Positions 5,638 through 60,551 of a DNA stretch of 64,000 bases are shown one piece after another; position 1 is the stretch's first letter; the number at the start of each line of letters is the position of its first letter. Under the pieces are notes generated by a model that saw only the letters and a program-made list of their open reading frames with translations, did not search any database and had not been told where the DNA came from. The DNA comes from Eretmocerus hayati. Taxonomy: Eukaryota > Arthropoda > Insecta > Hymenoptera > Aphelinidae. The position numbers and the translations under genes are program-made. The DNA lies in the NCBI GenBank assembly GCA_029851415.1, contig CM056743.1:122976305-123040304 (forward strand), in the 5' to 3' direction.

Positions 5638-5797
5638 TATAATTGTGAGTTGGTCAGTTGAGAAAAAATCCTTATCCGCTTCTAAGAGATTACCCTACGT
5701 CGACACAAGATGGAACATTCTTTATAAAGTCAATCTTAAAATTTCAGGAATTTCAGCTGTAGTAAGATTCATAACTGGGATAGGAAGGTTCTGTATA

Positions 5798-7273
5798 TGA
5801 GTAGTTCCGCGCGAAACAGACCTACGAAAAAGGGTCATGTCTTAAATTTTTTTCTTGACTTTCTTGATCGATTCTATGGTACAAAATATGAACTTTTCAC
5901 TACCTATGGGGCCCCAAAAAAATTTTCCAGGTACCTTCAACGTACATTACTTTGTTCTTTCGAATTATTTTCAACAAAAAGTTAGGGTATTTCTTTCAAT
6001 AAAATGAATTTTTCTGTTATTCGTTCAAAGATACAGAAATGCGGTTTGCGGCTTTCGAAAGGTCTCAAAAAAACCTATCGAAATCGGTCTTGTGAAGTTG
6101 ATTTTGATGTCTTGGGTGATTTTATCAGGCAAAAGAGTGAAATACATGGAAGATTAAATTTCTCGAAAATCCAATTTTTTCAAATTCTGAAAAGTTGATA
6201 TTTTATGTAAAATTTTGTGTTCTTTCAGAGGAAAAAGTCCCGAATTCCTTTTTTGCGTTCCACTACCTTTTTTTGTCAATCATCATAAATCCATTTTCCA
6301 GGCTCTTGGAAATTGTCTGTTTTCTGCGCACGCGCAGGAATTTGGAACCTTAAAACCAATTCCATTGGAAAGCCAAGAAAATTTCCTTCGAAATGACCAC
6401 TGGCCGAAGTCGATTTCATGCGTTTGAACCGAATCTACAACATATAAAAGATGATCCTCCAGCTCGAGTGCGACACATCGATGGACGCCATCGAACGGGG
6501 GCAGGCGTAAAAAAGTTCTTTTATCTAAAATTAATAATTTTGATGAAGTCATTGAAGATTATCCTGCTGTCTCCAGTACCTTCGACCCACCTCTGAGGAA
6601 CTATCAAGATTCAGTGGTCTTCTGGACGTTGCAACTCTGGCTCAAATGCATGGAATTGACTTCGGCAGGTAGTCATTCTCAAGGAAATTTTCTTGGCTTT
6701 CCAATGGAATTGGTTTCAAGGATCCAAGTTTCTGCGCATGCGCAGAAAACATACGATTTCCAAAAGCCTCGAAAATGGATTTGTGATAATTGGCAAAGAT
6801 AGGCGTTAGATCGCAAAAAAGGAATTCGGATATATCTTTTTCTGTAAGAACACAAAATTTTATATAAAATATCAACTTTTCAGAATTTTAAAAAATTGGG
6901 ATTTCGACAAATTTAATCTTCTATGTATTTCACTCTTTTGCCCGATAAAATCATCCAAGACATCAAAATCAACTTCACAAGACCGATTTCGATAGGTTTT
7001 TCAAAGACCTTTCGAATGCCGTAGATCGCATCTTTGTATCTTTGAACAAATTCGAGAAAAATTCATTTTATTGAAAAAAATACCCTAATTTTTTTGTTGA
7101 AAATAATTCAAAAGGATAAAGTTATGTACGTTGAAGGTACCTGGAAAATTTTTTTGGGGCCCCATAGGTAGTGAAAAGTTCATATTTTGTACCATAGAAT
7201 CGAATGAAAAAATCAAGAAAAAAAATTTAAGACATGACCCTTTTTCGTAGGTCTGTTCGCGCGGAACTACTCA
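5798..7273. mobile_element. 1.48-kb palindromic TA-flanked transposon (TIR TGAGTAGTTCCG)
   Basis: Starts TGAGTAGTTCCGCGCG and ends CGCGCGGAACTACTCA, with TA on each side (5796-5797 and 7274-7275). The two arms are inverted copies for about 0.6 kb each (for example GGTACCTTCAACGTACAT at about 5932 against ATGTACGTTGAAGGTACC at about 7123). Only about 0.2 kb (6430-6640) is unpaired. Arms contain TGCGCATGCGCA (6728-6739), a perfect NRF-1-like palindrome, or its TGCGCACGCGCA variant. No transposase frame. A second member of the TIR family lies at 28200-29151. Confidence 0.6.
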
Positions 7274-8434
7274 TACAGCAATCACGTGACATCGATTTGA
7301 ATGGGCGTCCGTATCGTTTCCAATTTCAATTGACTCTCAAAAAAAATTCATAGCGTTTGAAAATATTCTGTTTTTCAGAAATTATTCTTTTTACATCGAC
7401 TATCGACTGCATAAGCTAGAACATTTTAATTTGACACATGCGTGTTCCCTATTGACTTTGTCCAGTAGTTATTTCGCAGGAACTTCACTTGTCTATCAGT
7501 GATATCAGTTTCATGAGCCTAAATCCTGCAAATGCCTAAAAACTTAGCTTTCATTCGAGGAAGCTAAAAACATCCATAAAACGTCATCGACGTGTCACTC
7601 GGACCAGCTCTCAAAATTCGTTAAGCTCTCATTGTTCCAGCATACGACAACAGGTTCTGTGACTTTACAGACATGTTTATTCCCTATCCTATTCCGCATT
7701 TAATCGAAAGTCGTTGGTCGAAGATCAGCTGATCGTCGTCGGTGTGAACTCTCGCGAGTTCGCAAGAGTGTGTAACGTGTGTGAAATCGCATTGGTGTGA
7801 GTGTCCCCGCGCTGATTGGTGCCTTGATACAGATTTAGTTTGGTAAAACTGTATATGTGTAGCCCGATTTTGGATGTTTACACTGTACATCGGCCACGCA
7901 GGCGCCAGCAGAAGACACAATTTAGACGTCTCCACGATTCATCCATATGGCTCTCTCAATCAAAGGGGAGGGGATTCCCGGAGAGTGCGCGCGCGGGGGA
8001 ATCCTGCTGTTTCTGTTCGAGCGATGTGGCGCGAAAACTCAAATGGAACAAAACATGATCCGGAGCACGTACGAGTGGGCAAAATCCCATCGCGCGCGCG
8101 GTTGTCTTCGGTCCATATTCCATGGAAATAAATCACCGAATCGAAGTCTGTTCGTCCTCAAAAGTCGTTTACCGTAGAATCAGGAACGGAATCGCAGGCA
8201 ACAATAACGAAATCGCGGGTAACAATAACAAATCGAAAATAGCAAATACAATCCATCCATGGCTCTCTCAATCAAAGGGGAGAGGATTCCCGGAGAGATC
8301 GCGCGCGGGGGAATCCTGCGGTTCCTGTTCGAGCGATGTGGCGCGAAAACTCGTTCATCGTAGATTCAGGAAAGGAATCGCAGGCAACAATAGCGAAATC
8401 GCGGGTAACAATAACAAATCAAAACTAACAAATC

Positions 8435-8797: not shown

Positions 8798-10078
8798 CCT
8801 ACCTACCTACCTACGCGCGCCCGCGGCGGTTCTTAATTTTTTTTGGTCATGGCGATTGAATATAAGAATCATTTCGTAACTTCACAAATTGCTCTTTGTT
8901 TCAAGATAAATGCTCAATTCCAATACCTTAATTTTTTTTTATTTCTATGATTTTTATTTATAAACCGATCAAATAAGGATCTTGTCACGGTGCTTGTCGG
9001 CTACTGACACTCTTGAATCTACACTGCCACGTGCGGTGTTGCTTTGAGCAAGCACAAGTTGGCACCAACTTTGTCAGGTATAGAAGTTCTAAAAAGTACT
9101 TTAGATATAAAAAAAAAACACCTTATTCCGGAATCGCGTTCCAAAAAAACTCCTTGTTCCTGTATTTTTTATAATTAATCGATATTGCATTCAACGCTGT
9201 GTGGGTTCCCCGTAGCTCGTACCGACACGCAAGTAGACTTTAAAAATTCCAATTCTCCTAATAAAAACTCCTTCTTCACAGTTTTGGCATCCGATAATTT
9301 TTTATTTTGCAATTCATATAATAATTCATCACACCTGAAGTCCAGGTCACCAGCTGTACTACGTTGCGTGGTCCTTGTAGTGATCTGGCCTTCAGGTGTG
9401 ATGAATTATTATATGAATTGCAAAATAAAAAATTATCGGATGCTGGAAAACTGTGAAGAAGGAGTTTTTATTAGGAGACCTGGAAATTTTGAGGTCTACT
9501 TGCGTGTTGGTACGAACTACGGCGGGAAACCACACAGCGTTGAATGCAATGCACATAGTCATCGATTAATTGTAAAAAAATACAGGAATAAGGAGTTTTT
9601 TTGGAACGTGATCTCGGAATAAACTGTTTTTTTTGGATCTAAATCACTTCTTAGAATTTCTATACCTGACAAAGTTGGTGCCAACTTGTACTCACTCTTG
9701 CTTTGCGAGGGGACGTGTTTTACATGCGAGTAGTGTAGAAACATCTGTTTCCAGGCGTCCTCGCTTGGCGAGAAAGCTTGAAAACAAATGTTTCTACGCT
9801 ACTAGCATGTAAAACACATTACGTATCTCGTGTGGAAAACTTCGCGGGTAATGGGCCTATGCGGCGAGCGTGTGGATTCCGTGTGGCGGAATTTTATTTA
9901 ATACCTACTGACTACGAGAACAAAGTAAAAAGTGATCTATTCCAAAAGAGCATTTATTATTCAATTAAAAGCAATTTGTTAAAAACGAATTTGTTTGCAT
10001 TGTTAATTACCATGGCAAAAATAAAGATGAGAACCGCCGCGAGCGCGCGTAGGTAGGTAGGTAAGTAGGTGCGTGAGC
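8798..10078. repeat. Nested inverted repeat with CTAC/GTAG tetramer ends
   Basis: TACCTACCTACCTACC followed by a GCGCG-rich stretch and CGGCGGTTCTTA at the left is mirrored at the right by GAACCGCCGCGAGCGCGCG followed by TAGGTAGGTAGGTAAGTAGG. The repeats enclose about 1.2 kb including the hairpin at 9053-9690. Confidence 0.5.
9053..9690. repeat. 640-bp foldback hairpin
   Basis: Two inverted arms meet near 9365-9385. ACAAGTTGGCACCAACTTTG at the left is mirrored by CAAAGTTGGTGCCAACTTGT at the right, and the inner arms (TAATAATTCATCACACCTGA) are also mirrored. The 145-codon frame running through the right arm is a product of the palindrome and has no recognisable family features. A further small hairpin (GTGTTTTACATGCGAGTAG and its inverse) follows at about 9716-9822. 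Confidence 0.6.
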
Positions 10079-12057: not shown

Positions 12058-12063
12058 CGCAAA
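12058..12063. repeat. Left target-site duplication CGCAAA
   Basis: Six bases CGCAAA immediately precede the AGTAGTGGAG terminus. They are repeated exactly at 22263-22268 after the mirrored terminus. A 6-bp duplication is characteristic of Polinton/Maverick integration. Confidence 0.85.
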
Positions 12064-12075
12064 AGTAGTGGAGCT

Positions 12076-12156
12076 ATGCCAGTCCTGGCGCATGCCAGTT
12101 CTGGCGCAACGGTTCTAGCGCAATGGGAAATAGCATGTATGCCAGTTCTGGCGCAC
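12076..12156. repeat. Terminal short repeats (left)
   Basis: Reiterations of GCCAGTTCTGGCGCA and variants, each near-palindromic (CCAGTTCTGG), lie just inside the terminus. Such subterminal motifs are often transposase or replication-protein binding sites; here that is inference. Mirrored at 22170-22250. Confidence 0.6.
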
Positions 12157-12167
12157 TGTTGTAGAAT

Positions 12168-12486
12168 TAACCCATAACCCATATCTGTGTAGAATTTCAT
12201 AACCCATAACCCATATCTGTGTAGAATTTCATAACCCATGACCCATATACGTGTAGATTTTTACAACCCATATCAGTGTAGATTTCCATAACCCATGTTT
12301 GTGTAGATTTTATAACCCATAACCCATATTTGTGTATATTTTACAACCCATAACCCATATTTGTGGAGATTTTCACAACCCATATCTGTGATAAAATTCC
12401 CCAACCCATCTTTGTGAAGTTTCTCATAACCCATATCTGTGATGGAATTTTCCTAACCCATATCCGAATGGACTACCACATAACCC
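12168..12486. repeat. AACCCATA minisatellite (left)
   Basis: About ten degenerate units built around ATAACCCATATCTGTGTAGA, spaced 20-40 bp. The core ATATGGGTTATG (other strand) also heads every 117-bp unit further in, so the two arrays share an ancestral word. Mirrored at 21840-22158. Confidence 0.7.
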
Positions 12487-12562
12487 ATGTCGGTAAGGCA
12501 GGTTGCCACCTTGCCTACTGTAGGTAAGGGGTACACTTGAGCCGATAAGGTAGTGATCTGCA

Positions 12563-12605
12563 TTACCATCAGATGGTAAGACACTGCTTTACCATCAGAT
12601 GGTAA
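12563..12605. repeat. Paired 17-bp palindromes (left)
   Basis: TTACCATCAGATGGTAA appears twice, 26 bp apart start to start. Each copy is a perfect inverted repeat around one central base. Mirror of 21721-21763. Confidence 0.7.
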
Positions 12606-12657
12606 CCGATCACAACATGTGCAGGACAAACAGCCTGTACGTCAAATGTTTTTTGAT

Positions 12658-12673
12658 GGCCCTGAAAAGGGCC
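12658..12673 (-). ncRNA. Histone-type mRNA 3' stem-loop after gene A (left copy)
   Basis: Read on the minus strand this is GGCCCTTTTCAGGGCC, identical to the right copy at 21653-21668 (discussed there). It begins 20 nt after the stop codon of the left gene A. Confidence 0.65.
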
Positions 12674-12693
12674 GATTGTACTCCCCGCTCCGC

Positions 12694-12906
12694 CTAGCAA
12701 TCTGGAACATCATTCCTCCTTGCAGGCCTTGATGTTGGCACCGGCTCAGGCCTAGTCGGGATCCTAAACCATGGTTCTCGAGGAGGTGGTGGTGGAGGTG
12801 ACTGGAACAACCTGACCTCGATGACCACCACCGGTTCCCGACGTCTCGGTTCTATGTCGATGATAGGCATCGATGGCAACTCGGTGCGGAGCTCTTGTTG
12901 ATCCAT
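12694..12906 (-). CDS. Gene A (left copy): 70-aa proline-rich protein
   Basis: Mirror copy of the gene at 21420-21632, differing at residue 22 (Arg here, Leu in the right copy). The start was chosen because TATA and initiator lie 52 and 20 bp upstream. The longer frame simply reads through the promoter. The protein is small and polar with the stretch SPPPPPPREPW at about residues 36-46, and has no membrane segment or recognised domain. Its message would end with the histone-type stem-loop at 12658-12673. Confidence 0.6.
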   Translation of the reverse strand: MDQQELRTELPSMPIIDIEPRRREPVVVIEVRLFQSPPPPPPREPWFRIPTRPEPVPTSRPARRNDVPDC

Positions 12907-12924
12907 TGTGAGCAAGCGATTGAA

Positions 12925-12996
12925 TGACACCCTGACGCTCGGTAGCCTTGCTTTATAGTCGAGCCCCCTCCATCGAGCCACCGCAACGCATGCGCA
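12925..12996 (-). promoter_or_regulatory. Promoter of gene A, left copy
   Basis: Mirror of 21330-21401. On the minus strand it reads TGCGCATGCG, then TATAAA 39 bp later, then the initiator TCATTC with its A about 32 bp from the start of the TATA box. Confidence 0.65.
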
Positions 12997-13024
12997 CTTT
13001 CTTTTGGGGCCCAGGGCCGCCTGT

Positions 13025-13513
13025 TCACTGGGTTGTCCAGTCATCCGAAAAGGAAATCCAGCAATCTAATTCCACGATTTCGATACCTAGCTCCCCCATC
13101 CGTGCATGATCATCTTTACCTATTCCGCACTCTTTCATCTTATCTACGCAGTCTTTCAACTTGCGTAAGAACGGTGTCTCCCATCGAACTAATCTCTGCA
13201 TGTACAGATTGACATCTGTGATGATGATCTCTGCATCTCTCTTGTAGTAGTACCCGGTGTCGAAATTATAGAAGAAATGATCATCAATCCATAAATTGCC
13301 ATCCACTGTGTTGAACTCGAGTTTCGCCGATTCTACACATCTCTCGCACGACTCCTCTTCATCGAAGAAATTAACGCTGACTGCTACCTCACCAGGCAAG
13401 AGCCTCCAATCTTCGGATACTGGATACCCTTTGCAGGACTGCAAGGTCTCCTTTCTTTCTGTACACCCATCTTCACCCAGAAAATGGATGCAGATATTGA
13501 ACGAGAAGCCCAT
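13025..13513 (-). CDS. Gene B (left copy): 162-aa protein of unknown family
   Basis: Mirror copy of the right-arm gene at 20813-21301, with Asp at residue 78 where the right copy has Asn. The longer 190-codon frame begins inside the promoter, and its extra N-terminus (MRRRRLDLWWGR) is translated TATA-region DNA. The ATG used here lies about 11 bp after the initiator. See the right copy for sequence features. Confidence 0.65.
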   Translation of the reverse strand: MGFSFNICIHFLGEDGCTERKETLQSCKGYPVSEDWRLLPGEVAVSVNFFDEEESCERCVESAKLEFNTVDGNLWIDDHFFYNFDTGYYYKRDAEIIITDVNLYMQRLVRWETPFLRKLKDCVDKMKECGIGKDDHARMGELGIEIVELDCWISFSDDWTTQ

Positions 13514-13523
13514 GACGACAGAA

Positions 13524-13606
13524 TGATCCGTCTGCGTGTCCGACCGAGCTTTATATGCCAATCGCCCCCACCACAAGTCGAGCCGCCGACGCCGCACGCA
13601 TGCGCA
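13524..13606 (-). promoter_or_regulatory. Promoter of gene B, left copy
   Basis: Mirror of 20720-20802: TGCGCATGCG box, TATAAA 51 bp later, and TCATTC initiator 31 bp after the TATA box. Confidence 0.65.
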
Positions 13607-13647
13607 TATCTTAATTACTTTAGCTCTGAGTGATTACTCATTCCTCT

Positions 13648-14136
13648 TCAATGGAATACTTTCGAGTAATCCGTGAACGAGATCCAGTCTTCCTTCACAA
13701 CTTCGATGCCTAGCACTTTCATGCATGAATGATCATCCTTCCCTATTCCATACTCTCTAATCTTCTCCACACAATCTCTCAACCTGCGCAAAAATGGTGT
13801 TTCATATCGATCTACTTTCTTGAAGTATAGATCAACATCTGGGATAATGAGTTTTGAATGTTCTTTGTAGTAGTAGCCTGTGTCGAAATTATAGAAGAAT
13901 TGAGTTTCAACCCATAAATTGCCATCTTTTGTACTGAACACAAATGTAGGTGATTCAATGCATTTCTCGCAATACCGCCCCTCATAGAAGAAGTGAACGC
14001 TGACTGTTGCTTCACCCGGTAAGATCTTCCAATCTTGAGATTCGAGACGCCCTTTGTAAGAGTACATGGTATCTTTCCTCATTGTGCGCCCATCTCGATC
14101 CAGAAAGTGAACGCAGATGTAGTATGAGCAACCCAT
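13648..14136 (-). CDS. Gene C (left copy): 162-aa paralogue of gene B
   Basis: Mirror copy of 20190-20678 with the same predicted protein; one silent difference lies in the coding region. The frame is open far upstream through the 117-bp repeats (432 codons), but the promoter elements place the mRNA start after the first in-frame upstream ATG, so the short form is preferred. See the right copy. Confidence 0.65.
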   Translation of the reverse strand: MGCSYYICVHFLDRDGRTMRKDTMYSYKGRLESQDWKILPGEATVSVHFFYEGRYCEKCIESPTFVFSTKDGNLWVETQFFYNFDTGYYYKEHSKLIIPDVDLYFKKVDRYETPFLRRLRDCVEKIREYGIGKDDHSCMKVLGIEVVKEDWISFTDYSKVFH

Positions 14137-14146
14137 GATGTCGGAT

Positions 14147-14229
14147 TGATCCATTTGTTTATTCAACCGGGCTTTATATGCCAGTCGCCCCCACCACAAG
14201 TCGAGCCGCCGACGCCGCACGCATGCGCA
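14147..14229 (-). promoter_or_regulatory. Promoter of gene C, left copy
   Basis: Mirror of 20097-20179: TGCGCATGCG, TATAAA 51 bp later, TCAAT initiator 31 bp after the TATA box. Confidence 0.65.
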
Positions 14230-14295
14230 TATCTCGAATTCTTGAGTGTGTGCTAGTGTAAGCCAGAATGGCTCAATGTCTGTGATCCATAACCC

Positions 14296-15177
14296 ATATT
14301 TCAAGGTCTTTTGGCCGTATCTCAGCGGATAATGCCCCGAGAGGCTCCGCGATGAGTGCATTGAGTTCCTCGTGGACCCCTCTTTCATTTCCCACTCTGT
14401 GCTCCATAACCCATATCTCAAGGTCTTTTGGCCGTATCTCAGCGGATAATGCCCCGAGAGGCTCCGCGATGAGTGCATTGAGTTGCTCGTGGACCCCTCT
14501 TTCATTTCCCATTCATTGCTCCATAACCCATATTTCAAGGTCTTTTGGCCGTATCTCAGTGAATAATGCCCCGGGAAGTCCCGCGATGAGTGTATTGAGT
14601 TCCTCGTGGACCCCTCTTCCATTTCCCATCCTGTGCTCCGTAGCCCATATTTCAAGGTCTTTTGGCCGTATCTCAGTGAATAATGCCCCGGGAGGCCCCA
14701 CGATGAGTGCATTGAGTTCCTCGTGGACCCCTCTTTCATTTCCCATTCTAAGCTCCATAACCCATATTTCAGGGTCTTTTGGCCGTATCTCACTGGATAA
14801 TGCCCCGAGAGGCTCCGCGACAAGTGCATTGGGTTGCTCGTGGACCCCCCTTCTATTTCCCATACCGTGCTCAATAACCCATATTTCGAGGTCATGTGGG
14901 CATATCTCGGTAGATAATGCCCAGAGAGGCTCCGCGATGAGTGCATTGAAACCCTCGTAGACCCCCTTCAATTTTCCATACTGTGCTCCATAACCCATAT
15001 TCCAAGGTCTTCTGGCTGTATCTTGGTAGACAATACTCAGAGAGGCCCCGCGACAAGTGCATATAACCCATATTTCAAAGTCTATAGGCCATATGCTGAG
15101 AGAGGCCCCCCCGGGATGAGCGCATTGTGTTCCTCGTGAACCCCGCTTACAATTTTTCATGCTGTGCTCCATAACCC
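14296..15177. repeat. 117-bp tandem array (left)
   Basis: Mirror of 19149-20030. Six units of 116-117 bp plus two shorter degenerate ones. Each carries CCATAACCCATATTTCAAGG and GGACCCCTCTTTCATTTCCC. A unit of 117 bp is exactly 39 codons, which keeps frames open on both strands and produces the long but artefactual ORFs across this stretch. Confidence 0.75.
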
Positions 15178-15656
15178 AACTCTCTCCATAACTCATAAAC
15201 CTCCGAAAGAAGGGTTGCTCCATAACCCAACTTGCTCCATAACCCATGTGTCTTCAAAAGAATGTTTTACTCCATAACCCAACTTGCTCTATAACCCACG
15301 TGTCTCCAAAAATGCAGGTTTTCCGGTAATGCAGGTTTCCTCCCTACCAACAGTCGGCAAAGTAGAGTCTCTTCCTCATCATCAAGAGTTGAGCGGAGGT
15401 GATGCAGGTATCATGACAACTACTCTCCCCAGGCCCCGATCTGCGGGACTCAAGGTCCGTAACTCAACGAATAAAACTAACTCACACGATTGAGCGTCAG
15501 CTATCGAATTCACGTCTAGTAGGCAGCCGTCCAGCGGCCAGATGCCAGCAGCCAGCAGCCAGGTGCAGGTGTCAAGTGGGGCAACTCATCCCGGTGCTCG
15601 CATCCTGATGCATGCGCTCCCCTCTAGCGGCCGGTTCTGATCATTCCCACGACGTG

Positions 15657-15941
15657 CCGGTACTCAGCTATACCGTACGGTATTCGACCGGTACTCGGCT
15701 ATACCGCGCGGTATTCGATTGGTATTCGATCGGTATTCGGCTATACCGCGCGTTATTCGATCGGTATTCGGCTATACCGCGCGGTATTCCGTCGGTATTC
15801 GGCTATACCGTGCGGTATTTGATCGGTATTCGGCTATACCGCGCGTTATTCGATCAGTATCCGGCTATACCGCGCGGTATTCCGTCGGTATTCGGCTATA
15901 CCGCGCGGTATTCGATCGGCATCCGGCTATACCGCGCGGTA
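15657..15941. repeat. 31-bp palindromic tandem array (left, about 9 units)
   Basis: Units of 31 bp contain ATACCGCGCGGTAT, a perfect 14-bp palindrome, linked by TCGATCGGTATTCGGCT-type spacers. The array sits at the inner end of the arm. The right arm has two more units. Confidence 0.75.
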
Positions 15942-16064
15942 CTCTATCGCTATTCTCTCCCTCAAATCATCCCGCAACTCGGGTCGAGAGTTAGAGTCCT
16001 TGGACTAAGTTTACCTCATCAACCGAGAGACGCTTGTCTAAGGGTTCATGTAAACATGAGTCGC

Positions 16065-17246
16065 TCAGCTCCCTATTTCTGGCTCCAGTTTGGACCAGTA
16101 GTATCTCCCATTATAATGACGCCTCCTGATACCTTGCATATATTGTATGGTCCGTGGGAGAGTCTCGTATGACGGAAGTCCTAATCGTCTGAATGATTGA
16201 CGTGCGAATGTGAGCAATAAATCTCTGTTCCTGGACCTCGAAGTTTGCTGACTCTTTCCCGAATAACCTTTGACTAGGCAAGGGACCCACGCTCCGGCCT
16301 TTGGGGCTCGGAAATCCATGTATGGAGAAGTTCCCCTATCGTATATTTCGTCTGTGGCGTCACCTGTCGCAGACCCTCTGGAGTAACAATGGGGTTGCCA
16401 ATGATCGCGAGTTAGCCATTGCTCACTGGACTCATTTTGTTTGGACTCCCAGTTATCAATGCATGGATTATCTGAGTCAGACTGTGAATCGTCCCTCGAA
16501 CTGAAAGGGTAGGATACTCGGGTACTTCCGGAATCATTCTGTGAACATGATATACTCTCTAGGTCTTCGTGCATACTGCTAGGGTCCGAAATATCAAAGC
16601 TAGGGTATGATTCCGCATTACCCTGTGAACTGGTGAGACCCGGATTGTCAGAACTTCTATCGAACATTGAATGACTCTCATTGCGACCCTCCTTAGGAGT
16701 AACACTGTCGACAGCTCCCTCTCTATTCGATGACTCGTGAGGAGACGATTCCACCGAACTCTTGGAATTCTCAACGATTACCGACTGGTTCTGATCACGA
16801 CTCTCTGGAGGCGCAACATTGCCAAGAGCTCCACTATTCTCTGCATTCTCATACGTAGACGGTTGTGTTCGTAAAATGAACTCTCCGGCATGGTTGTGAT
16901 CGCCAACGCTGACCAGATTCGTTCCCCGAGTCACTGCTGTACTTCGACATTTGGTCTTATAGTATGCATGGCATTTCCATCGAACTGTACCGTCTCGATG
17001 GACTTTCTCTCGGTTAAAATGACTCCCATTCACTACAAGTTGATCCTTGCCAAGACGATTCTTGATGAATTTCATCGATTCATCGATCTCTTCTGCCTGT
17101 GGAGGCTCCTCATTTCCACCCGGTACTCGGACCTGATTCGATTTGCTCAAGTCCCCTCGATATGAGGGCTCCTCGCGTAGAAGCTGCAGTTTCTTCTTCA
17201 CCGCCATAGCAGCTCTCTCGAGAGCTTCCTCGAAGTTCTCACCCAT
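16065..17246 (-). CDS. FLYWCH-type zinc-finger protein (393 aa)
   Basis: Seen: residues 1-55 are charged and helical in composition. Residues 58-121 fit a FLYWCH finger, with Phe60, Phe77, Trp90, Cys92, Cys100, His117 and His119 in the expected C-x7-C-x16-H-x-H spacing. Residues 125-290 are Ser/Asn/Glu-rich and probably disordered. The basic C-terminus (about 325-390) contains RRRHYNGRYYW. Known: FLYWCH fingers bind DNA and occur in transposase-like and insect transcription factors such as mod(mdg4). Inferred: a DNA-binding regulator or terminus-binding protein of the element. The ATG at 17246 follows a TATA box and initiator at 17266-17306. The gene lies 85 bp downstream of the DUF8207-like gene on the same strand, in the single-copy centre. 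The C-terminus shows no recognisable domain. Confidence 0.75.
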   Translation of the reverse strand: MGENFEEALERAAMAVKKKLQLLREEPSYRGDLSKSNQVRVPGGNEEPPQAEEIDESMKFIKNRLGKDQLVVNGSHFNREKVHRDGTVRWKCHAYYKTKCRSTAVTRGTNLVSVGDHNHAGEFILRTQPSTYENAENSGALGNVAPPESRDQNQSVIVENSKSSVESSPHESSNREGAVDSVTPKEGRNESHSMFDRSSDNPGLTSSQGNAESYPSFDISDPSSMHEDLESISCSQNDSGSTRVSYPFSSRDDSQSDSDNPCIDNWESKQNESSEQWLTRDHWQPHCYSRGSATGDATDEIYDRGTSPYMDFRAPKAGAWVPCLVKGYSGKSQQTSRSRNRDLLLTFARQSFRRLGLPSYETLPRTIQYMQGIRRRHYNGRYYWSKLEPEIGS

Positions 17247-17265
17247 GTCGTCAGCTTAACTGCTC

Positions 17266-17306
17266 AATGAGTAATGTTCCTCTGGTCATTCTTATCTGTA
17301 TTTATA
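17266..17306 (-). promoter_or_regulatory. Promoter of the FLYWCH gene
   Basis: On the minus strand TATAAATA starts at 17306, and TCATTG, an initiator-like motif, follows about 38 bp later at 17265-17270. The predicted leader is about 20 nt. It lies in the 85-bp gap after the DUF8207-like stop codon, so the FLYWCH gene appears to have its own promoter. Confidence 0.5.
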
Positions 17307-17331
17307 CTAAATCTTGCTCAAGAATACTAAT

Positions 17332-18279
17332 TCAAGAGTAAGTTGTACTTATGTAGCCCGCCAGATACAAAGATTCTAAGATAGCTCTTATCTCATCATC
17401 GTTATTTCGATTACCAGCTGACTTTTCATCAATTAGACCCCGAAGTCTGTCGACTATCTTATTCGGATCATCCCAATATATAGTGATCAACCCACTCGCC
17501 AGTGATCCGCCTCGTTTATCCACGTCAAATAGTGGCGCGATTATGTTCTGGAATTTTCGGCTCTTGCTCTTGCGCAGTTCTCCATCGTGCACGAATCTTT
17601 TACGGTGAACATGCGAGACATCCAAGATTTTGCGATAGTTTCTCATATCTTCCTCAGATATCACATTTTGATCTGGGGATCTTTTGAAGATCAATTCAAG
17701 CAAACCAGTTGTGGTTGGGAACCGGTGGTTATCTACTGTGATATAGTCATTGGTTAGCTGTACTCGAGATTTACCGATTCCCAAGGAATTCCCATTCCGT
17801 CTGACTCCATATATCCTATCAAGATTACGATCATCCCTACGCAGGGTAGATAAGTAGTATTCGGGCTCGCTAAGTTCATCATCAGCCGTCTCGAATGAAG
17901 CAACCGAAGAATTTTGACTCTCGATATCCTCTGGAACGCTCCGATTCATTAAAGTCTCGTCGCCTATATACGAGGCCTTGACCGAATCGTCCAGTTGTCC
18001 GAATTCTTTCTGGAGATCCCGGTGGTTTTCTTGATGGGCTATGATTTTTTCGAGTGGATCAGTAATGGGCTTGAATGTATCACTCATGTTTTTCTCAAAC
18101 TCAGCTTGTTGGCGCTGCATCGCCACATATTTTCGTTTGAGAGCTCGTTTGGCTTTCATGAGCTTGACGAGTTCATCTCTTTGATTGATATAGTCCTCCA
18201 TGTCCGCGGTTTGACGTGCTCTGATTGACTGGAGTACCTCCCTAGGAATCATCCCTTTTATATCAGAGTTCCTGACCAT
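17332..18279 (-). CDS. DUF8207-like protein (315 aa), Polinton-associated family
   Basis: Seen: an N-terminal helical region (residues 10-95: IPREVLQSIR, KRALKRKYVAM, TFKPITDPLEKII), an acidic linker (105-145), YGVRR at 157-161, then TTGLLELIFKRSPD (190-203), NYRKILDVSHVHRK (214-227) and IYWDDPNKIVDRLRGLI (267-283). Known, from memory: this combination (IPR..., GVR, TTGL.ELIFK..PD, NY..IL, WDDPNELVDRL, AGN...NEI..I) marks an uncharacterised arthropod family I believe is DUF8207, abundant in insect genomes in mobile contexts. Start: the first ATG after the 31-bp array; the longer 460-codon frame reads through the repeats. A second ATG ten codons later matches where relatives usually begin. Function is unknown. 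Confidence 0.75.
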   Translation of the reverse strand: MVRNSDIKGMIPREVLQSIRARQTADMEDYINQRDELVKLMKAKRALKRKYVAMQRQQAEFEKNMSDTFKPITDPLEKIIAHQENHRDLQKEFGQLDDSVKASYIGDETLMNRSVPEDIESQNSSVASFETADDELSEPEYYLSTLRRDDRNLDRIYGVRRNGNSLGIGKSRVQLTNDYITVDNHRFPTTTGLLELIFKRSPDQNVISEEDMRNYRKILDVSHVHRKRFVHDGELRKSKSRKFQNIIAPLFDVDKRGGSLASGLITIYWDDPNKIVDRLRGLIDEKSAGNRNNDDEIRAILESLYLAGYISTTYS

Positions 18280-18322
18280 TCGTGATGACTCAAACCAGGA
18301 TACCGATCGAGTACTAATCGAA

Positions 18323-18669
18323 TACCGCGCGGTATAGCCGGATGCCGATCGAATACCGCGCGGTATAGCCGAATACCGACGGAATACCGCGCGGTATAGC
18401 CGAATACCGATCAAATACCGCACGGTATAGCCGAATACCGACGGAATACCGCGCGGTATAGCCGGATACCGATCGAATAACGCGCGGTATAGCCGAATAC
18501 CGATCAAATACCGCACGGTATAGCCGAATACCGACGGAATACCGCGCGGTATAGCCGAATACCGATCGAATAACGCGCGGTATAGCCGAATACCGATCGA
18601 ATACCAATCGAATACCGCGCGGTATAGCCGAGTACCGGTCGAATACCGTACGGTATAGCTGAGTACCGG
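18323..18669. repeat. 31-bp palindromic tandem array (right, about 11 units)
   Basis: Same array as 15657-15941 with two extra units, accounting exactly for the 62-bp difference in arm length. Each unit carries the 14-bp palindrome ATACCGCGCGGTAT or a one-base variant. It lies directly upstream of the DUF8207-like start codon at 18279, so it could serve as regulatory or replication-protein sites for the centre genes. The long frames with YRAVFDRYSAIPR repeats are translated repeat. Confidence 0.75.
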
Positions 18670-19148
18670 CACGTCGTGGGAATGATCAGAACCGGCCGCT
18701 AGAGGGGAGCGCATGCATCAGGATGCGAGCACCGGGATGAGTTGCCCCACTTGACACCTGCACCTGGCTGCTGGCTGCTGGCATCTGGCCGCTGGACGGC
18801 TGCCTACTAGACGTGAATTCGATAGCTGACGCTCAATCGTGTGAGTTAGTTTTATTCGTTGAGTTACGGACCTTGAGTCCCGCAGATCGGGGCCTGGGGA
18901 GAGTAGTTGTCATGATACCTGCATCACCTCCGCTCAACTCTTGATGATGAGGGAGAGACTCTACTTTGCCGACTGTTGGTAGGGAGGAAACCTGCATTAC
19001 CGGAAAACCTGCATTTTTGGAGACACGTGGGTTATAGAGCAAGTTGGGTTATGGAGTAAAACATTCTTTTGAAGACACATGGGTTATGGAGCAAGTTGGG
19101 TTATGGAGCAACCCTTCTTTCGGAGGTTTATGAGTTATGGAGAGAGTT

Positions 19149-20030
19149 GGGTTATGGAGCACAGCATGAAAAATTGTAAGCGGGGTTCACGAGGAACACA
19201 ATGCGCTCATCCCGGGGGGGCCTCTCTCAGCATATGGCCTATAGACTTTGAAATATGGGTTATATGCACTTGTCGCGGGGCCTCTCTGAGTATTGTCTAC
19301 CAAGATACAGCCAGAAGACCTTGGAATATGGGTTATGGAGCACAGTATGGAAAATTGAAGGGGGTCTACGAGGGTTTCAATGCACTCATCGCGGAGCCTC
19401 TCTGGGCATTATCTACCGAGATATGCCCACATGACCTCGAAATATGGGTTATTGAGCACGGTATGGGAAATAGAAGGGGGGTCCACGAGCAACCCAATGC
19501 ACTTGTCGCGGAGCCTCTCGGGGCATTATCCAGTGAGATACGGCCAAAAGACCCTGAAATATGGGTTATGGAGCTTAGAATGGGAAATGAAAGAGGGGTC
19601 CACGAGGAACTCAATGCACTCATCGTGGGGCCTCCCGGGGCATTATTCACTGAGATACGGCCAAAAGACCTTGAAATATGGGCTACGGAGCACAGGATGG
19701 GAAATGGAAGAGGGGTCCACGAGGAACTCAATACACTCATCGCGGGACTTCCCGGGGCATTATTCACTGAGATACGGCCAAAAGACCTTGAAATATGGGT
19801 TATGGAGCAATGAATGGGAAATGAAAGAGGGGTCCACGAGCAACTCAATGCACTCATCGCGGAGCCTCTCGGGGCATTATCCGCTGAGATACGGCCAAAA
19901 GACCTTGAGATATGGGTTATGGAGCACAGAGTGGGAAATGAAAGAGGGGTCCACGAGGAACTCAATGCACTCATCGCGGAGCCTCTCGGGGCATTATCCG
20001 CTGAGATACGGCCAAAAGACCTTGAAATAT
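19149..20030. repeat. 117-bp tandem array (right)
   Basis: Units start at GGGTTATGGAGCA: 19149, 19256, 19330, 19446, 19563, 19680, 19797, 19914, ending at 20030. The last six are 116-117 bp. Because the unit is 39 codons long, translations repeat every 39 residues in several frames on both strands, which argues against coding. The array ends in the gene C promoter region. Confidence 0.75.
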
Positions 20031-20096
20031 GGGTTATGGATCACAGACATTGAGCCATTCTGGCTTACACTAGCACACACTCAAGAATTCGAGATA

Positions 20097-20179
20097 TGCG
20101 CATGCGTGCGGCGTCGGCGGCTCGACTTGTGGTGGGGGCGACTGGCATATAAAGCCCGGTTGAATAAACAAATGGATCA
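20097..20179 (+). promoter_or_regulatory. Promoter of gene C (right copy)
   Basis: TGCGCATGCG at 20097-20106 (11 of 12 bases of the NRF-1 site YGCGCAYGCGCR), TATAAA at 20148-20153, and TCAAT initiator with its A at 20179, 31 bp from the TATA start. The 57 bp from the box through the TATA differ from the gene B promoter at only one position. Confidence 0.7.
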
Positions 20180-20189
20180 ATCCGACATC

Positions 20190-20678
20190 ATGGGTTGCTC
20201 ATACTACATCTGCGTTCACTTTCTGGATCGAGATGGGCGCACAATGAGGAAAGATACCATGTACTCTTACAAAGGGCGTCTCGAATCTCAAGATTGGAAG
20301 ATCTTACCGGGTGAAGCGACAGTCAGCGTTCACTTCTTCTATGAGGGGCGGTATTGCGAGAAATGCATTGAATCACCTACATTTGTGTTCAGTACAAAAG
20401 ATGGCAATTTATGGGTTGAAACTCAATTCTTCTATAATTTCGACACAGGCTACTACTACAAAGAACATTCAAAACTCATTATCCCAGATGTTGATCTATA
20501 CTTCAAGAAAGTAGATCGATATGAAACACCATTTTTGCGCAGGTTGAGAGATTGTGTGGAGAAGATTAGAGAGTATGGAATAGGGAAGGATGATCATTCA
20601 TGCATGAAAGTGCTAGGCATCGAAGTTGTGAAGGAAGACTGGATCTCGTTCACGGATTACTCGAAAGTATTCCATTGA
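20190..20678 (+). CDS. Gene C: 162-aa paralogue of gene B, unknown family
   Basis: I do not recognise this protein. It aligns with gene B without gaps for about 149 residues. Shared motifs are ICVHFL near the N-terminus, WKILPGE (36-42), a CEKC pair (56-59), DGNLW (71-75), FYNFDTGYYYK (81-91), YETPFLRRL (111-119), GIGKDDH (130-136) and WISF (151-154). There is no signal peptide or membrane segment. The start at 20190 lies 11 nt after the predicted mRNA start; an in-frame ATG at 20172 would be upstream of it. The CxxC pair may bind metal with other Cys or His residues, which is inference. Gene B follows 134 bp downstream with its own promoter. Confidence 0.7.
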   Translation: MGCSYYICVHFLDRDGRTMRKDTMYSYKGRLESQDWKILPGEATVSVHFFYEGRYCEKCIESPTFVFSTKDGNLWVETQFFYNFDTGYYYKEHSKLIIPDVDLYFKKVDRYETPFLRRLRDCVEKIREYGIGKDDHSCMKVLGIEVVKEDWISFTDYSKVFH

Positions 20679-20719
20679 AGAGGAATGAGTAATCACTCAG
20701 AGCTAAAGTAATTAAGATA

Positions 20720-20802
20720 TGCGCATGCGTGCGGCGTCGGCGGCTCGACTTGTGGTGGGGGCGATTGGCATATAAAGCTCGGTCGGACACGCAGACGGAT
20801 CA
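20720..20802 (+). promoter_or_regulatory. Promoter of gene B (right copy)
   Basis: TGCGCATGCG at 20720-20729, TATAAA at 20771-20776, TCATTC initiator at 20800-20805 with its A at 20802 (31 bp from the TATA start). Predicted leader about 11 nt. Confidence 0.7.
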
Positions 20803-20812
20803 TTCTGTCGTC

Positions 20813-21301
20813 ATGGGCTTCTCGTTCAATATCTGCATCCATTTTCTGGGTGAAGATGGGTGTACAGAAAGAAAGGAGACCTTGCAGTCCTGCAAAGGGT
20901 ATCCAGTATCCGAAGATTGGAGGCTCTTGCCTGGTGAGGTAGCAGTCAGCGTTAATTTCTTCGATGAAGAGGAGTCGTGCGAGAGATGTGTAGAATCGGC
21001 GAAACTCGAGTTCAACACAGTGGATGGCAATTTATGGATTGATAATCATTTCTTCTATAATTTCGACACCGGGTACTACTACAAGAGAGATGCAGAGATC
21101 ATCATCACAGATGTCAATCTGTACATGCAGAGATTAGTTCGATGGGAGACACCGTTCTTACGCAAGTTGAAAGACTGCGTAGATAAGATGAAAGAGTGCG
21201 GAATAGGTAAAGATGATCATGCACGGATGGGGGAGCTAGGTATCGAAATCGTGGAATTAGATTGCTGGATTTCCTTTTCGGATGACTGGACAACCCAGTG
21301 A
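20813..21301 (+). CDS. Gene B: 162-aa protein, unknown family
   Basis: Paralogue of gene C with roughly half of residues identical. Conserved features: ICIHFL, WRLLPGE (36-42), CERC (56-59), DGNLW (71-75), FYNFDTGYYYK (81-91), WETPFLRKL (111-119), GIGKDDH (130-136) and WISF (152-155). The identical length and gap-free alignment support the chosen start. The protein is acidic, probably globular and intracellular. Residue 78 is Asn here and Asp in the left copy. Maintenance of two frames in both arms implies selection or recent spread. I cannot name a function; capsid-associated, anti-defence or regulatory roles are all open. Confidence 0.7.
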   Translation: MGFSFNICIHFLGEDGCTERKETLQSCKGYPVSEDWRLLPGEVAVSVNFFDEEESCERCVESAKLEFNTVDGNLWIDNHFFYNFDTGYYYKRDAEIIITDVNLYMQRLVRWETPFLRKLKDCVDKMKECGIGKDDHARMGELGIEIVELDCWISFSDDWTTQ

Positions 21302-21329
21302 ACAGGCGGCCCTGGGCCCCAAAAGAAAG

Positions 21330-21401
21330 TGCGCATGCGTTGCGGTGGCTCGATGGAGGGGGCTCGACTATAAAGCAAGGCTACCGAGCGTCAGGGTGTC
21401 A
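21330..21401 (+). promoter_or_regulatory. Promoter of gene A (right copy)
   Basis: TGCGCATGCG at 21330-21339, TATAAA at 21369-21374, TCATTC initiator from 21399 with its A at 21401. Box-to-TATA spacing is 39 bp, against 51 bp in genes B and C. Confidence 0.65.
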
Positions 21402-21419
21402 TTCAATCGCTTGCTCACA

Positions 21420-21632
21420 ATGGATCAACAAGAGCTCCGCACCGAGTTGCCATCGATGCCTATCATCGACATAGAACCGAGACTTCGGGAACCGGTGGTG
21501 GTCATCGAGGTCAGGTTGTTCCAGTCACCTCCACCACCACCTCCTCGAGAACCATGGTTTAGGATCCCGACTAGGCCTGAGCCGGTGCCAACATCAAGGC
21601 CTGCAAGGAGGAATGATGTTCCAGATTGCTAG
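21420..21632 (+). CDS. Gene A: 70-aa proline-rich protein with histone-type mRNA end
   Basis: Starts MDQQELRTEL, contains a hydrophobic strand VVVIEVRLF (about 26-34), then SPPPPPPREPW and a Pro/Arg-rich tail ending NDVPDC. No known domain. The start follows a TATA box and TCATTC initiator at conserved spacing; the 116-codon upstream extension is promoter DNA. The protein is nearly identical in both arms. Twenty nt after the stop is a 16-nt sequence identical to a canonical histone 3' stem-loop, suggesting a non-polyadenylated, S-phase-linked message. Basic residues and small size would suit a DNA- or SH3-binding protein, but this is speculation. Confidence 0.6.
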   Translation: MDQQELRTELPSMPIIDIEPRLREPVVVIEVRLFQSPPPPPPREPWFRIPTRPEPVPTSRPARRNDVPDC

Positions 21633-21652
21633 GCGGAGCGGGGAGTACAATC

Positions 21653-21668
21653 GGCCCTTTTCAGGGCC
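21653..21668 (+). ncRNA. Histone-type mRNA 3' stem-loop after gene A
   Basis: GGCCCTTTTCAGGGCC has a 6-bp stem and 4-nt loop and fits the SLBP-binding consensus of replication-dependent histone mRNAs (GG-YYY-U-UUHC-A-RRR-CC). It is followed by ATCA and an A-rich CAAAAAAC, similar to the ACCA cleavage site and purine-rich downstream element. It is correctly oriented and 20 nt past the stop of gene A, and is duplicated in the other arm. No histone gene is present in the window. Confidence 0.7.
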
Positions 21669-21720
21669 ATCAAAAAACATTTGACGTACAGGCTGTTTGT
21701 CCTGCACATGTTGTGATCGG

Positions 21721-21763
21721 TTACCATCTGATGGTAAAGCAGTGTCTTACCATCTGATGGTAA
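21721..21763. repeat. Paired 17-bp palindromes (right)
   Basis: TTACCATCTGATGGTAA at 21721-21737 and again at 21747-21763. Two identical dyad-symmetric sites 26 bp apart look like a paired protein-binding site or replication signal. Confidence 0.7.
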
Positions 21764-21839
21764 TGCAGATCACTACCTTATCGGCTCAAGTGTACCCCTT
21801 ACCTACAGTAGGCAAGGTGGCAACCTGCCTTACCGACAT

Positions 21840-22158
21840 GGGTTATGTGGTAGTCCATTCGGATATGGGTTAGGAAAATTCCATCACAGATATGGGTTAT
21901 GAGAAACTTCACAAAGATGGGTTGGGGAATTTTATCACAGATATGGGTTGTGAAAATCTCCACAAATATGGGTTATGGGTTGTAAAATATACACAAATAT
22001 GGGTTATGGGTTATAAAATCTACACAAACATGGGTTATGGAAATCTACACTGATATGGGTTGTAAAAATCTACACGTATATGGGTCATGGGTTATGAAAT
22101 TCTACACAGATATGGGTTATGGGTTATGAAATTCTACACAGATATGGGTTATGGGTTA
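21840..22158. repeat. ATATGGGTTATG minisatellite (right)
   Basis: Mirror of 12168-12486. Repeats of ATATGGGTTATGGGTTATGA with TCTACACA-type spacers. GGGTTA resembles the shifted vertebrate-type telomere hexamer, but the unit is longer and irregular. Confidence 0.7.
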
Positions 22159-22169
22159 ATTCTACAACA

Positions 22170-22250
22170 GTGCGCCAGAACTGGCATACATGCTATTTCC
22201 CATTGCGCTAGAACCGTTGCGCCAGAACTGGCATGCGCCAGGACTGGCAT
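22170..22250. repeat. Terminal short repeats (right)
   Basis: Mirror of 12076-12156: TGCGCCAGAACTGGCAT and variants immediately inside the right terminus. Confidence 0.6.
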
Positions 22251-22262
22251 AGCTCCACTACT

Positions 22263-22268
22263 CGCAAA
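22263..22268. repeat. Right target-site duplication CGCAAA
   Basis: Perfect copy of 12058-12063, immediately after the CTCCACTACT terminus. Confidence 0.85.
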
Positions 22269-37820: not shown

Positions 37821-38929
37821 CAGGGAGCCGCTCACTAGGGAGTAGGAGATGCCAATGTCGGCTAATACGGCTACTGCCGAGGCTAATGTGCGCTACCGCA
37901 ACAGAGCCACCACCGAGCGCAAGTAGATAAAAGTAGTCAAAAATAACCTCGATGAGATGCGAAAGAGAAGAATTCGTGGGCCACGTTGCGTTGTACTGCA
38001 CACTACTTCACAGCCGCTGTAGGCTACTTCTAGCTACTGTAGAGCTCGTATTGCAGACCTGTGAAGCCACCAACTTCATTTGAATAGTAGCAGGAATTAG
38101 CCAAGAGTGGCATATACAGTACGAAAAAGCATCACGATCGTGCGCCGGCTACCCAGAGCCGGCTCATATTGGCTACTCCCGATCACTCGTATATTTTCGG
38201 TCATTGTCTTCAATTTATGAAGAAAACCCCGAAGTCGCCGATATTAGCCGTTTCTAATGTGTTGAAACGTGGCGAAGTTCACCCATTTCATGCCAGCGTC
38301 GATATATTTTCAATAGAGACTACTTCACGCTACTGTTGGCTACTGCACCCTCACGGAACGGACTGCATTAAACTGGATTCGGCGCATGCACATAGCTCAT
38401 GAACATTCGGGAGCATCCACGAAGTAGTGCAAGTAGCCCCGAAACGATGCTTTGTGTACAATGAACTGACTAAGCTCTTGATAAATTCCTGATTTCGGAC
38501 TCGAATGGTAGGTGGTACATCTAGTTTGAGATATCACCAATATCATTGACCGAAAATGTACAAATGGTCGGAAGTAGCCAATATCATCTTGCTCTGGATA
38601 GCCAGCACACGACACCGATGCTTACTCGTGCTGTATGGGCCACTCTTGGCTACTTCCTGTTACTATTGAAATGAAGTTGGTGGCTTCACAGGTCTGCAAT
38701 ACGAGCTCTACAGTAGCTAGAAGTAGCCTACAGCGACTGTAAAGTAGTGTGCAGTACAACGCAACGTGGCCCACGAATTCTACTCTTTCGCATCTCATCG
38801 AGGCTATTTTTGACTACTTTTATCTACTTGCACCCGGTGGTGGCTCTGTTGGGGTAGCGCACATTAGCGTCGTCAGTAGCCGTATTAGCCGACATTGGCA
38901 TCGGCTACTCCCTAGTGAGCGCCCCCCTG
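37821..38929. mobile_element. hAT-type foldback element (1.1 kb)
   Basis: Starts CAGGGAGCCGCTCACTAGGG and ends CCCTAGTGAGCGCCCCCCTG. Flanked by GGTTTTTG (37813-37820) and GGTCTTTG (38930-38937), an 8-bp duplication with one mismatch. Arms of about 300 bp are inverted copies around a centre at 38375. They generate the twin frames starting MQYNATWPTNS, which are non-coding mirror images. Confidence 0.75.
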
Positions 38930-60217: not shown

Positions 60218-60220
60218 TGA

Positions 60221-60548
60221 CAAGGAGAGGCCAGGGAGTGCGGGTCACGGATTCGGATGAAACTTTGGGAATAGTCTCCTTTTAGCACCAAAAGATGATA
60301 CCCAAAGCCGCAGAGTCTAACGCTCAAGCGTTTCCGAGCTGCGAACTAGAACCCATGCATTGCAGTATATCTATATATACCATTTTCCACATATATAGAT
60401 ATACTGTAATGCATGGGTTGTAGCCTGTAGCTCGAAAACGCTTAAGCGTTAGACTCTGCGACTTTGGGTATCATCTTTTGGTGCTAAAAGGAGACTATTC
60501 CCGGAGTTTTATCCAGATCCCTGACCCGCACTCCCTGGCCTCTCCTGG
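60221..60548. mobile_element. Palindromic PIF/Harbinger-like MITE, copy 2
   Basis: Starts CAAGGAGAGGCCAGGGAGTG and ends CACTCCCTGGCCTCTCCTGG. Flanked by TGA on both sides (60218-60220 and 60549-60551). Arms share AACGCTCAAGCGTTTCCGAG with copy 1. Confidence 0.65.
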
Positions 60549-60551
60549 TGA

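What the first reader, a model, noticed from the sequence alone, without database searches (positions are those of the whole stretch)
12058..22268. 10.2-kb Polinton-like palindrome with 3.9-kb TIRs and an unfamiliar gene set
Seen: AG...CT ends, a perfect 6-bp duplication CGCAAA, and arms that make up about three quarters of the element. Known: these ends and duplication size define Polinton/Maverick elements, whose TIRs are normally a few hundred bp to about 1-2 kb and which encode PolB, integrase and capsid proteins. Here none of those is recognisable; instead there are duplicated small genes plus a DUF8207-like and a FLYWCH gene. Inference: a satellite-like or virophage-like dependent lineage of Polintons, possibly undescribed.
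Basis: partly seen in the sequence, partly recalled or inferred. Interest (0 to 1): 0.92.

Follow-up and report, generated by a model that had tools for sequence, protein, structure and literature searches.

The report
Satellite Polinton family in a wasp
In a parasitic wasp's genome, a 10-kb mirror-image mobile element uses the same ends as full-sized virus-like Polintons living there, but lacks their polymerase, integrase and capsid genes and instead keeps its own gene pair and a conserved palindromic repeat, so it looks like a member of a family of dependent satellites of an animal integrating virus.

Summary
Confirmed and extended. The host is the wasp Eretmocerus hayati. The element is 12064-22262 (10,199 bp), flanked by CGCAAA, with 3,892-bp arms (13 mismatches) and AGTAGT...ACTACT ends, the commonest vertebrate Maverick end motif. 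Paralogous copies of the target repeat show the empty site. Of 12 other elements with both ends read, 11 have perfect 6-bp duplications and one has 5 of 6. Two 18-kb relatives with the same ends carry capsid, ATPase, integrase and PolB sequences. The window copy has none of these; it shares their left end (genes C-A-B), mirrored to both sides, and a distant DUF8207 gene. Two short classes (29 and 45 DUF8207 copies listed) pair DUF8207 with a FLYWCH gene (29/29, 40/45; third class 0/51), have no capsid hit nearby (0/29, 0/45; third class 33/51; capped lists), and carry a 31-bp palindromic repeat 26/31 identical between classes and absent from the two full-size elements read. Best reading: an old, diversified satellite lineage of Polintons, mobilised in trans. 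Dependence, packaging and FLYWCH-repeat binding are inferred, not shown.

The parts
12058..12063 (.). left target site duplication CGCAAA
   Evidence: single copy in 3 of 3 paralogous empty sites
22263..22268 (.). right target site duplication CGCAAA
12064..15955 (+). left terminal inverted repeat, begins AGTAGTGGAG
18371..22262 (-). right terminal inverted repeat, ends CTCCACTACT
12064..14278 (+). left-end module shared with full-size elements E11 and E12 (long blocks 94% and 91% identical); homology to both stops at 14278
12694..12906 (-). gene C, 70 aa, proline-rich; TATAAA 51 nt upstream
13025..13513 (-). gene A, 162 aa; no database relative, many copies in this genome; TATAAA 42 nt upstream
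13648..14136 (-). gene B, 162 aa, paralogue of A (57% aa; dN 0.25, dS 0.90); TATAAA 42 nt upstream
20190..20678 (+). gene B, right-arm copy
   Evidence: mirror coordinates
20813..21301 (+). gene A, right-arm copy (one residue differs)
21420..21632 (+). gene C, right-arm copy
   Evidence: mirror coordinates
14279..15062 (.). 117-bp tandem array, 6.7 copies
19264..20047 (.). 117-bp tandem array, right-arm copy
15721..15955 (.). 31-bp palindromic repeat (iteron-like) array, 7.6 copies, core ACCGCGCGGT
18317..18605 (.). 31-bp palindromic repeat array, 9.3 copies, beginning 38 bp upstream of the DUF8207 start
16065..17246 (-). FLYWCH zinc-finger gene, 393 aa; found with the short classes only; TATAAA 60 nt upstream
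17332..18279 (-). DUF8207 (PF26634) gene, 315 aa, long N-terminal helix; distant homologue (35-39%) of the gene between ATPase and integrase in full-size relative E11

Best explanation
It is one copy of a family of satellite Polintons: non-autonomous elements with their own conserved genes that live off full-size Polintons in the same wasp genome. Shown: shared ends, 6-bp duplications, a shared left-end gene module, absence of the core genes from the window copy, a DUF8207-FLYWCH gene pair and 31-bp repeat found with the short classes, and DNA shared at 99% between short and full-size elements. Inferred: a helper's integrase inserts the satellite through the common AGTAGT ends, and a helper's protein-primed PolB copies it. 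The long arms most likely arose when a helper-type left end replaced the right end during end-to-end copying, as in mirror-image deletion genomes of linear viruses (recalled). The FLYWCH protein probably binds the 31-bp palindromes beside the centre and controls expression or copying of the satellite, while DUF8207 supplies a satellite version of a helper protein, perhaps for particle assembly.
For: Ends and duplications: 11 of 12 other elements with both ends read have perfect 6-bp duplications, all different, all with AGTAGTGGA ends. E11 (18,539 bp) and E12 (18,104 bp; sizes) share the ends; E11 has double jelly-roll capsid (E 2e-115), PLA2-like, A32-type ATPase and rve hits and PolB pieces; E12 has capsid (3e-107) and PolB hits and matches all 13 E11 protein pieces. 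DUF8207 hits in three identity classes: capsid hit within 12 kb in 0/29, 0/45, 33/51; FLYWCH within 4 kb in 29/29, 40/45, 0/51. Module homology to both full-size elements ends at 14278. Both arms of E3 and of E4 hold PolB and integrase-end sequence of E11; the block is about 1.1 kb, measured at 99.1% (E3 left) and 99.3-99.4% (E4 both arms); E6 holds the second half of the capsid gene at 99%. 31-bp unit: 26/31 identical between the two short classes (best of 5,000 shuffles 19); 0 core palindromes in 38.7 kb of E11/E12 pieces; 1,111 genomic matches against 0 for the reversed pattern. Constraint: A versus B dN/dS 0.27 and 0.41 by two methods on 150 codons; DUF8207 between one copy of each class dN 0.21, dS 2.08.
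Against: No movement, transcription, replication or packaging was observed. The window's own helper is not identified; PolB of E11 is in several frames. In E12 the ATPase hit and one PolB piece are under the Pfam cut-off, as are the chromo domain and two PolB pieces of E11. dS between classes is saturated and the second method failed; only one copy of each class was compared. Genes A, B, C are not universal: E5 has 46 residues of A, E3 and E4 lack B; in the capped gene A list an outward pair flanks DUF8207 in only 12/29 and 15/45, and in 3/51 of the third class. Satellite DUF8207 is 34-46% identical to the third class, so it is no recent deletion product of E11 or E12. 5 of 45 second-class hits lack FLYWCH nearby and 20 of 113 FLYWCH rows lack DUF8207 within 5 kb. 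FLYWCH-repeat binding rests on co-occurrence alone.
Confidence: 0.85

Rival explanations
1. Plain deletion derivative: ordinary broken Polintons whose ends still work, with DUF8207 and FLYWCH as passengers of no benefit to the element.
For: Copies vary in arms and size (7.2-14.0 kb); E3, E4 and E6 carry fragments of full-size elements; C3:81.38M (L024) holds 3.1 kb of full-size sequence in a rearranged form.
Against: DUF8207 has FLYWCH within 4 kb in 69 of 74 hits of two classes whose synonymous sites are saturated, with dN below dS in both genes for the one pair compared; the 31-bp repeat is 26/31 identical. No FLYWCH hit lies within 4 kb of the 51 third-class DUF8207 hits.
Confidence: 0.1
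2. Foldback-, Galileo- or MULE-type transposon unrelated to Polintons that happens to have long, internally repetitive arms and a FLYWCH domain.
For: Long arms built of tandem repeats; FLYWCH occurs in some transposases (recalled).
Against: Duplications are 6 bp, the ends match the Maverick motif, and about 2 kb of the arms are 91-94% identical to capsid-bearing elements.
Confidence: 0.01
3. Host-domesticated element: the centre genes serve the wasp (as in bracovirus-like systems) and the spread is a by-product.
For: A DUF8207 protein is filed under Cotesia sesamiae Mombasa bracovirus, and two E. hayati gene models join a FLYWCH-gene stretch to other sequence.
Against: Dispersed copies with different target sites and arms mostly 94.2-100% alike in the longest blocks measured look like a mobile parasite. 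The bracovirus link probably reflects the Maverick into which a bracovirus segment is inserted in that wasp (PMC3573978 passage).
Confidence: 0.04

Closest known systems
Polinton/Maverick elements (Eupolintoviridae, formerly adintoviruses)
   Same: AGTAGT...ACTACT ends, 6-bp duplications, terminal inverted repeats; left-end genes and a DUF8207 gene shared with full-size Polintons of the same genome.
   Different: No PolB, integrase, capsid or ATPase in the window copy; 10.2 kb against 12.7-24.6 kb, and arms of 3.9 kb against 46-1,447 bp, in intact vertebrate Mavericks (PMC8097293, passages); FLYWCH gene and 31-bp array.
Virophages and satellite viruses
   Same: Small element probably dependent on a larger virus's machinery, with genes of its own.
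   Different: Virophages use giant viruses (PMC9952930, abstract start in a search listing; PMC4028283, passage) and have their own major capsid protein (PMC4409740, abstract start in a listing); here no capsid gene was found and the presumed helper is a Polinton.
Mirror-image or defective-interfering genomes of linear DNA viruses (recalled)
   Same: One genome end replaced by an inverted copy of the other, with loss of core genes.
   Different: This one is an integrated, old, gene-bearing lineage, not a transient by-product.
Non-autonomous DNA transposons and MITEs (recalled)
   Same: Depend on the ends for mobilisation in trans.
   Different: Keeps at least two protein genes with dN below dS and a conserved repeat array.

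Membership tests
Polinton/Maverick | 6-bp target site duplication | tested here: met
   Window, plus 11 of 12 other elements perfect and one 5/6
Polinton/Maverick | AG...CT, commonly (AGT)2...(ACT)2, ends | tested here: met
   AGTAGT...ACTACT; motif from PMC8097293 passages
Polinton/Maverick | terminal inverted repeats (46-1,447 bp in intact vertebrate Mavericks) | tested here: inconclusive
   Present but 3,892 bp; E11 and E12 show 0.66-0.89 kb
Polinton/Maverick | protein-primed PolB | tested here: not met
   PolB pieces present in E11 and E12
Polinton/Maverick | rve integrase | tested here: not met
   present in E11 and by protein match in E12
Polinton/Maverick | double jelly-roll major capsid protein and packaging ATPase | tested here: not met
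   present in E11 and E12
Polinton/Maverick | maturation protease | not tested
   no protease family was recognised in E11 either, so no query was at hand
Polinton/Maverick, as a non-autonomous relative | DNA shared with full-size members of the same genome | tested here: met
   left module at 91-94%
Virophage | own major capsid protein | tested here: not met
Virophage or satellite virus | replication or packaging by a helper | not testable with these tools
   needs an experiment
Foldback/Galileo/MULE | duplications of about 7-11 bp (recalled) | tested here: not met
   6 bp

The most novel reading that the evidence does not exclude
An animal integrating-virus group has its own long-lived satellite lineage: elements that hold no intact capsid or replication gene but encode a dedicated DNA-binding protein (FLYWCH) acting on a satellite-only iteron array, so that helper-made enzymes and particles serve the satellite first. 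That would be a virophage- or P4-like hyperparasite of Polintons inside an insect genome, possibly limiting the helpers.
Probability: 0.35. Interest if true: 0.92.

Novelty: new variant of a known kind. Interest (0 to 1): 0.82.

Why it matters
Polintons are regarded as virus-like, but their particles have not been observed (PMC8097293, abstract start in a search listing), and satellites of theirs were not seen described in the searches made here. A satellite lineage that has kept its own genes through a split deep enough to saturate synonymous sites, in a genome where short and full-size elements share 99%-identical DNA, would imply that Polintons have been replicating in this wasp lineage long enough, and recently enough, to be parasitised. 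It makes the question whether Polintons replicate and form particles testable by looking for linear extrachromosomal or packaged satellite DNA. It also gives a handle on DUF8207, a domain of unknown function that one search finds in named proteins of nine ant genera.

Tried and rejected
Viral contigs: DUF8207 alone and as a 20-sequence alignment gave no relative. Gene A: no database relative and a useless model, mean pLDDT 35.6. DUF8207 model: mean pLDDT 79.6 but pTM 0.43; no PDB match below E 1; one viral match, E 1e-14, itself a DUF8207 protein; PDB sequences nothing below E 0.05. PHROGs: best E 0.018. Assembly artefact: rejected by the unique centre, the duplications and the empty sites. 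Foldback or MULE element: rejected by duplication size and shared module. Genes A and B as non-coding: rejected by dN/dS, shared TATA boxes and retention in full-size elements; gene C rests on the TATA box and its retention alone. Long ORFs through the 117-bp and 31-bp arrays: set aside as frames through tandem repeats, on judgement. Three places got no duplication because an end was missing from the pieces or not found: L031/L032, L035/L036 and L024; they are left out of the 12.
Full report
WHERE IT IS. The window is G000:C3:122976305-123040304 of a 692,130,109-base assembly. Its C1 contig is 204,958,428 bases, the length of the contig that carries two Eretmocerus hayati proteins matching parts of the window's FLYWCH protein (36% and 41% of it) at 99% and 91%. 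The published E. [quoted passage not shown] The host is therefore E. hayati, a wasp parasitoid of whiteflies.

THE OBSERVATION. The joined flanks match 40 other places (40 scored of 116 candidates) straight across the junction at 89-97% identity; three fetched copies of three have exactly one CGCAAA there. The element thus inserted into a dispersed repeat and duplicated 6 bp. Four mismatches in the outer 3.79 kb of the arms suggest a young insertion, if the arms were identical on insertion.

ANATOMY. Each arm carries three small genes read outward: C, A and B. A and B are diverged paralogues (57% aa) under constraint (dN/dS 0.27 by NG86, 0.41 by YN00, 150 codons). All three have TATAAA 42-51 nt before the start and a GCGCATGCG motif 89-92 nt before it; FLYWCH has TATAAA at 60 nt, DUF8207 has none within 200 nt (the motif's likeness to an NRF-1 site is recalled). 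Further in lie a 117-bp array and, next to the centre, an array of 31-bp units with a palindromic ACCGCGCGGT core. The centre holds DUF8207 and, 85 bp downstream on the same strand, FLYWCH. The DUF8207 model has mean pLDDT 79.6, pTM 0.43, an 81-residue N-terminal helix and a mixed C-terminal domain.

FAMILY. The first 601 bases give 59 matches in the genome. Both ends were read for ten further elements: E2-E8 and E10 (short, 7.2-14.0 kb) and E11, E12 (18.5 and 18.1 kb; sizes). Nine have perfect 6-bp duplications and E12 has 5 of 6. Of four loci of a second short class of which pieces from both sides were fetched, two gave both ends (8.0 and 8.5 kb) and both have perfect duplications; the left end of the other two was not found.

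HELPERS. E11 gives hits to the double jelly-roll capsid protein, a PLA2-like domain, an A32-type ATPase and rve integrase, a sub-threshold chromo domain, and PolB in three pieces, one of them over the Pfam cut-off; E12 gives capsid and PolB, with ATPase under the cut-off, and matches all 13 E11 protein pieces. DUF8207 lies between ATPase and integrase in E11, the place of the gene called Cc in an insect Maverick map (PMC3573978, figure legend; equating Cc with DUF8207 is my inference). The terminal repeats of E11 and E12 are 0.66-0.89 kb, and A-type genes sit at the left end only. Homology between the window arm and both of them ends at the same base, 14278, where the 117-bp array starts. The satellite thus has a helper-type left end on both sides. 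Other loci where capsid and gene A hits occur in mirror orientation (C1:10.92M, C3:121.79M, C3:129.31M; hit lists only, DNA not read) suggest that mirror duplication recurs in this genome.

TWO DISJOINT CLASSES. DUF8207 hits fall in three identity classes: 88-100% (29), 56-70% (45), 34-46% (51) of 125 rows kept from 131 (126 of 868 candidates scored). These are gene copies, not elements: E6 holds two centre units and E10 an extra partial DUF8207. A capsid hit lies within 12 kb in 0, 0 and 33; FLYWCH lies within 4 kb in 29, 40 and 0. As a second test, E11 protein pieces were searched in the fetched pieces. Window, E2, E5, E7, E8 and E10: DUF8207 only. Against a clean picture: E3 and E4 hold fragments of integrase (92 aa), PolB (106 aa) and one more E11 ORF in their arms, and E6 holds the second half of the capsid gene (213 of 418 aa). 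The shared 1.1-kb DNA block is 99.1% identical to E11 in E3 and 99.3-99.4% in E4, and the E6 block 99.7%, so short and full-size elements have shared DNA recently.

AGE AND CONSTRAINT. The two short classes share gene order and architecture in the one second-class locus read through its centre but differ by 35% in DUF8207 and about 57-62% in FLYWCH. Synonymous sites are saturated (dN 0.21, dS 2.08 for DUF8207; 0.62, 1.72 for FLYWCH; one copy of each; YN00 failed). Yet the 31-bp unit is 26/31 identical, against a best of 19 in 5,000 shuffles. A 30-letter pattern of the unit occurs 1,111 times in the genome and the reversed control 0 times; the 100 places listed fall in six loci, each within 5 kb of a first- or second-class DUF8207 hit (one search compared by eye). 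The core CCGCGCGG occurs 10-75 times in ten satellite stretches, 0 times in the four E11/E12 pieces, and once in the window's left flank. A 31-bp period is about three helical turns, which would place sites on one face of the DNA (general knowledge).

MECHANISM. Shown: common ends, duplication size, shared module, absent core genes, retained own genes with dN below dS, shared DNA. Inferred: integration and protein-primed copying by helper enzymes; origin of the long arms by copying of one end onto the other; control of the satellite by FLYWCH through the palindromes; a packaging or copying role for DUF8207. Confidence in the satellite reading is 0.85; in FLYWCH-repeat binding about 0.4.

LITERATURE. 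No paper in the held library contains DUF8207. Six phrases for non-autonomous or defective Polintons gave three papers, each for Polinton-derived only, seen as listings. FLYWCH with Polinton or Maverick: 136 papers hold two of the three words; none of the 12 listed holds FLYWCH. A broader search listed eight papers whose titles do not treat Polinton satellites. Vertebrate Mavericks are 12.7-24.6 kb with 46-1,447-bp TIRs (PMC8097293, passages). Repbase-type libraries could not be searched, so consensus entries without a paper may exist.

Noticed in passing
G000 C1:10924173-10940133, C3:121793263-121808574, C3:129307267-129320623: Loci where capsid (PF21738) and gene A hits occur in mirror orientation on both sides: apparent terminal-repeat expansion in full-size-class elements; hit lists only.
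   Followed up: partly
L024 (G000:C3:81376200-81386100): Rearranged element: 3.1 kb matching E11 at 99% beside two left-end modules in the same orientation.
   Followed up: partly
P0063, P0064: E. hayati gene models join a stretch of the FLYWCH protein to unrelated sequence, in P0064 to a trypsin domain; chimeric annotation or exon capture.
   Followed up: no
G000, whole genome: Heavy Polinton load: 909 capsid and 944 PolB first-look candidates; many listed PolB hits lie in frames open over 1,300-1,558 residues.
   Followed up: no
62267-63148: Reverse transcriptase fragment (RVT_1, E 2.8e-10), Penelope-like by recalled motifs.
   Followed up: no
48414-48959: ORF resembling the start of KRBA2-like integrases (recalled; no Pfam hit).
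   Followed up: no
9051-9692, 5796-7275, 37821-38929, 60217-60552: Several smaller imperfect palindromes and inverted repeats, perhaps MITE-like.
   Followed up: no
BFVD R9XLH4: A DUF8207 protein is filed under Cotesia sesamiae Mombasa bracovirus; in that wasp a bracovirus segment is inserted in a Maverick.
   Followed up: partly
L031:2-2532: Tyrosine recombinase-like and reverse transcriptase-like ORFs beside a satellite of the second class, DIRS-like (recalled; not scanned).
   Followed up: no
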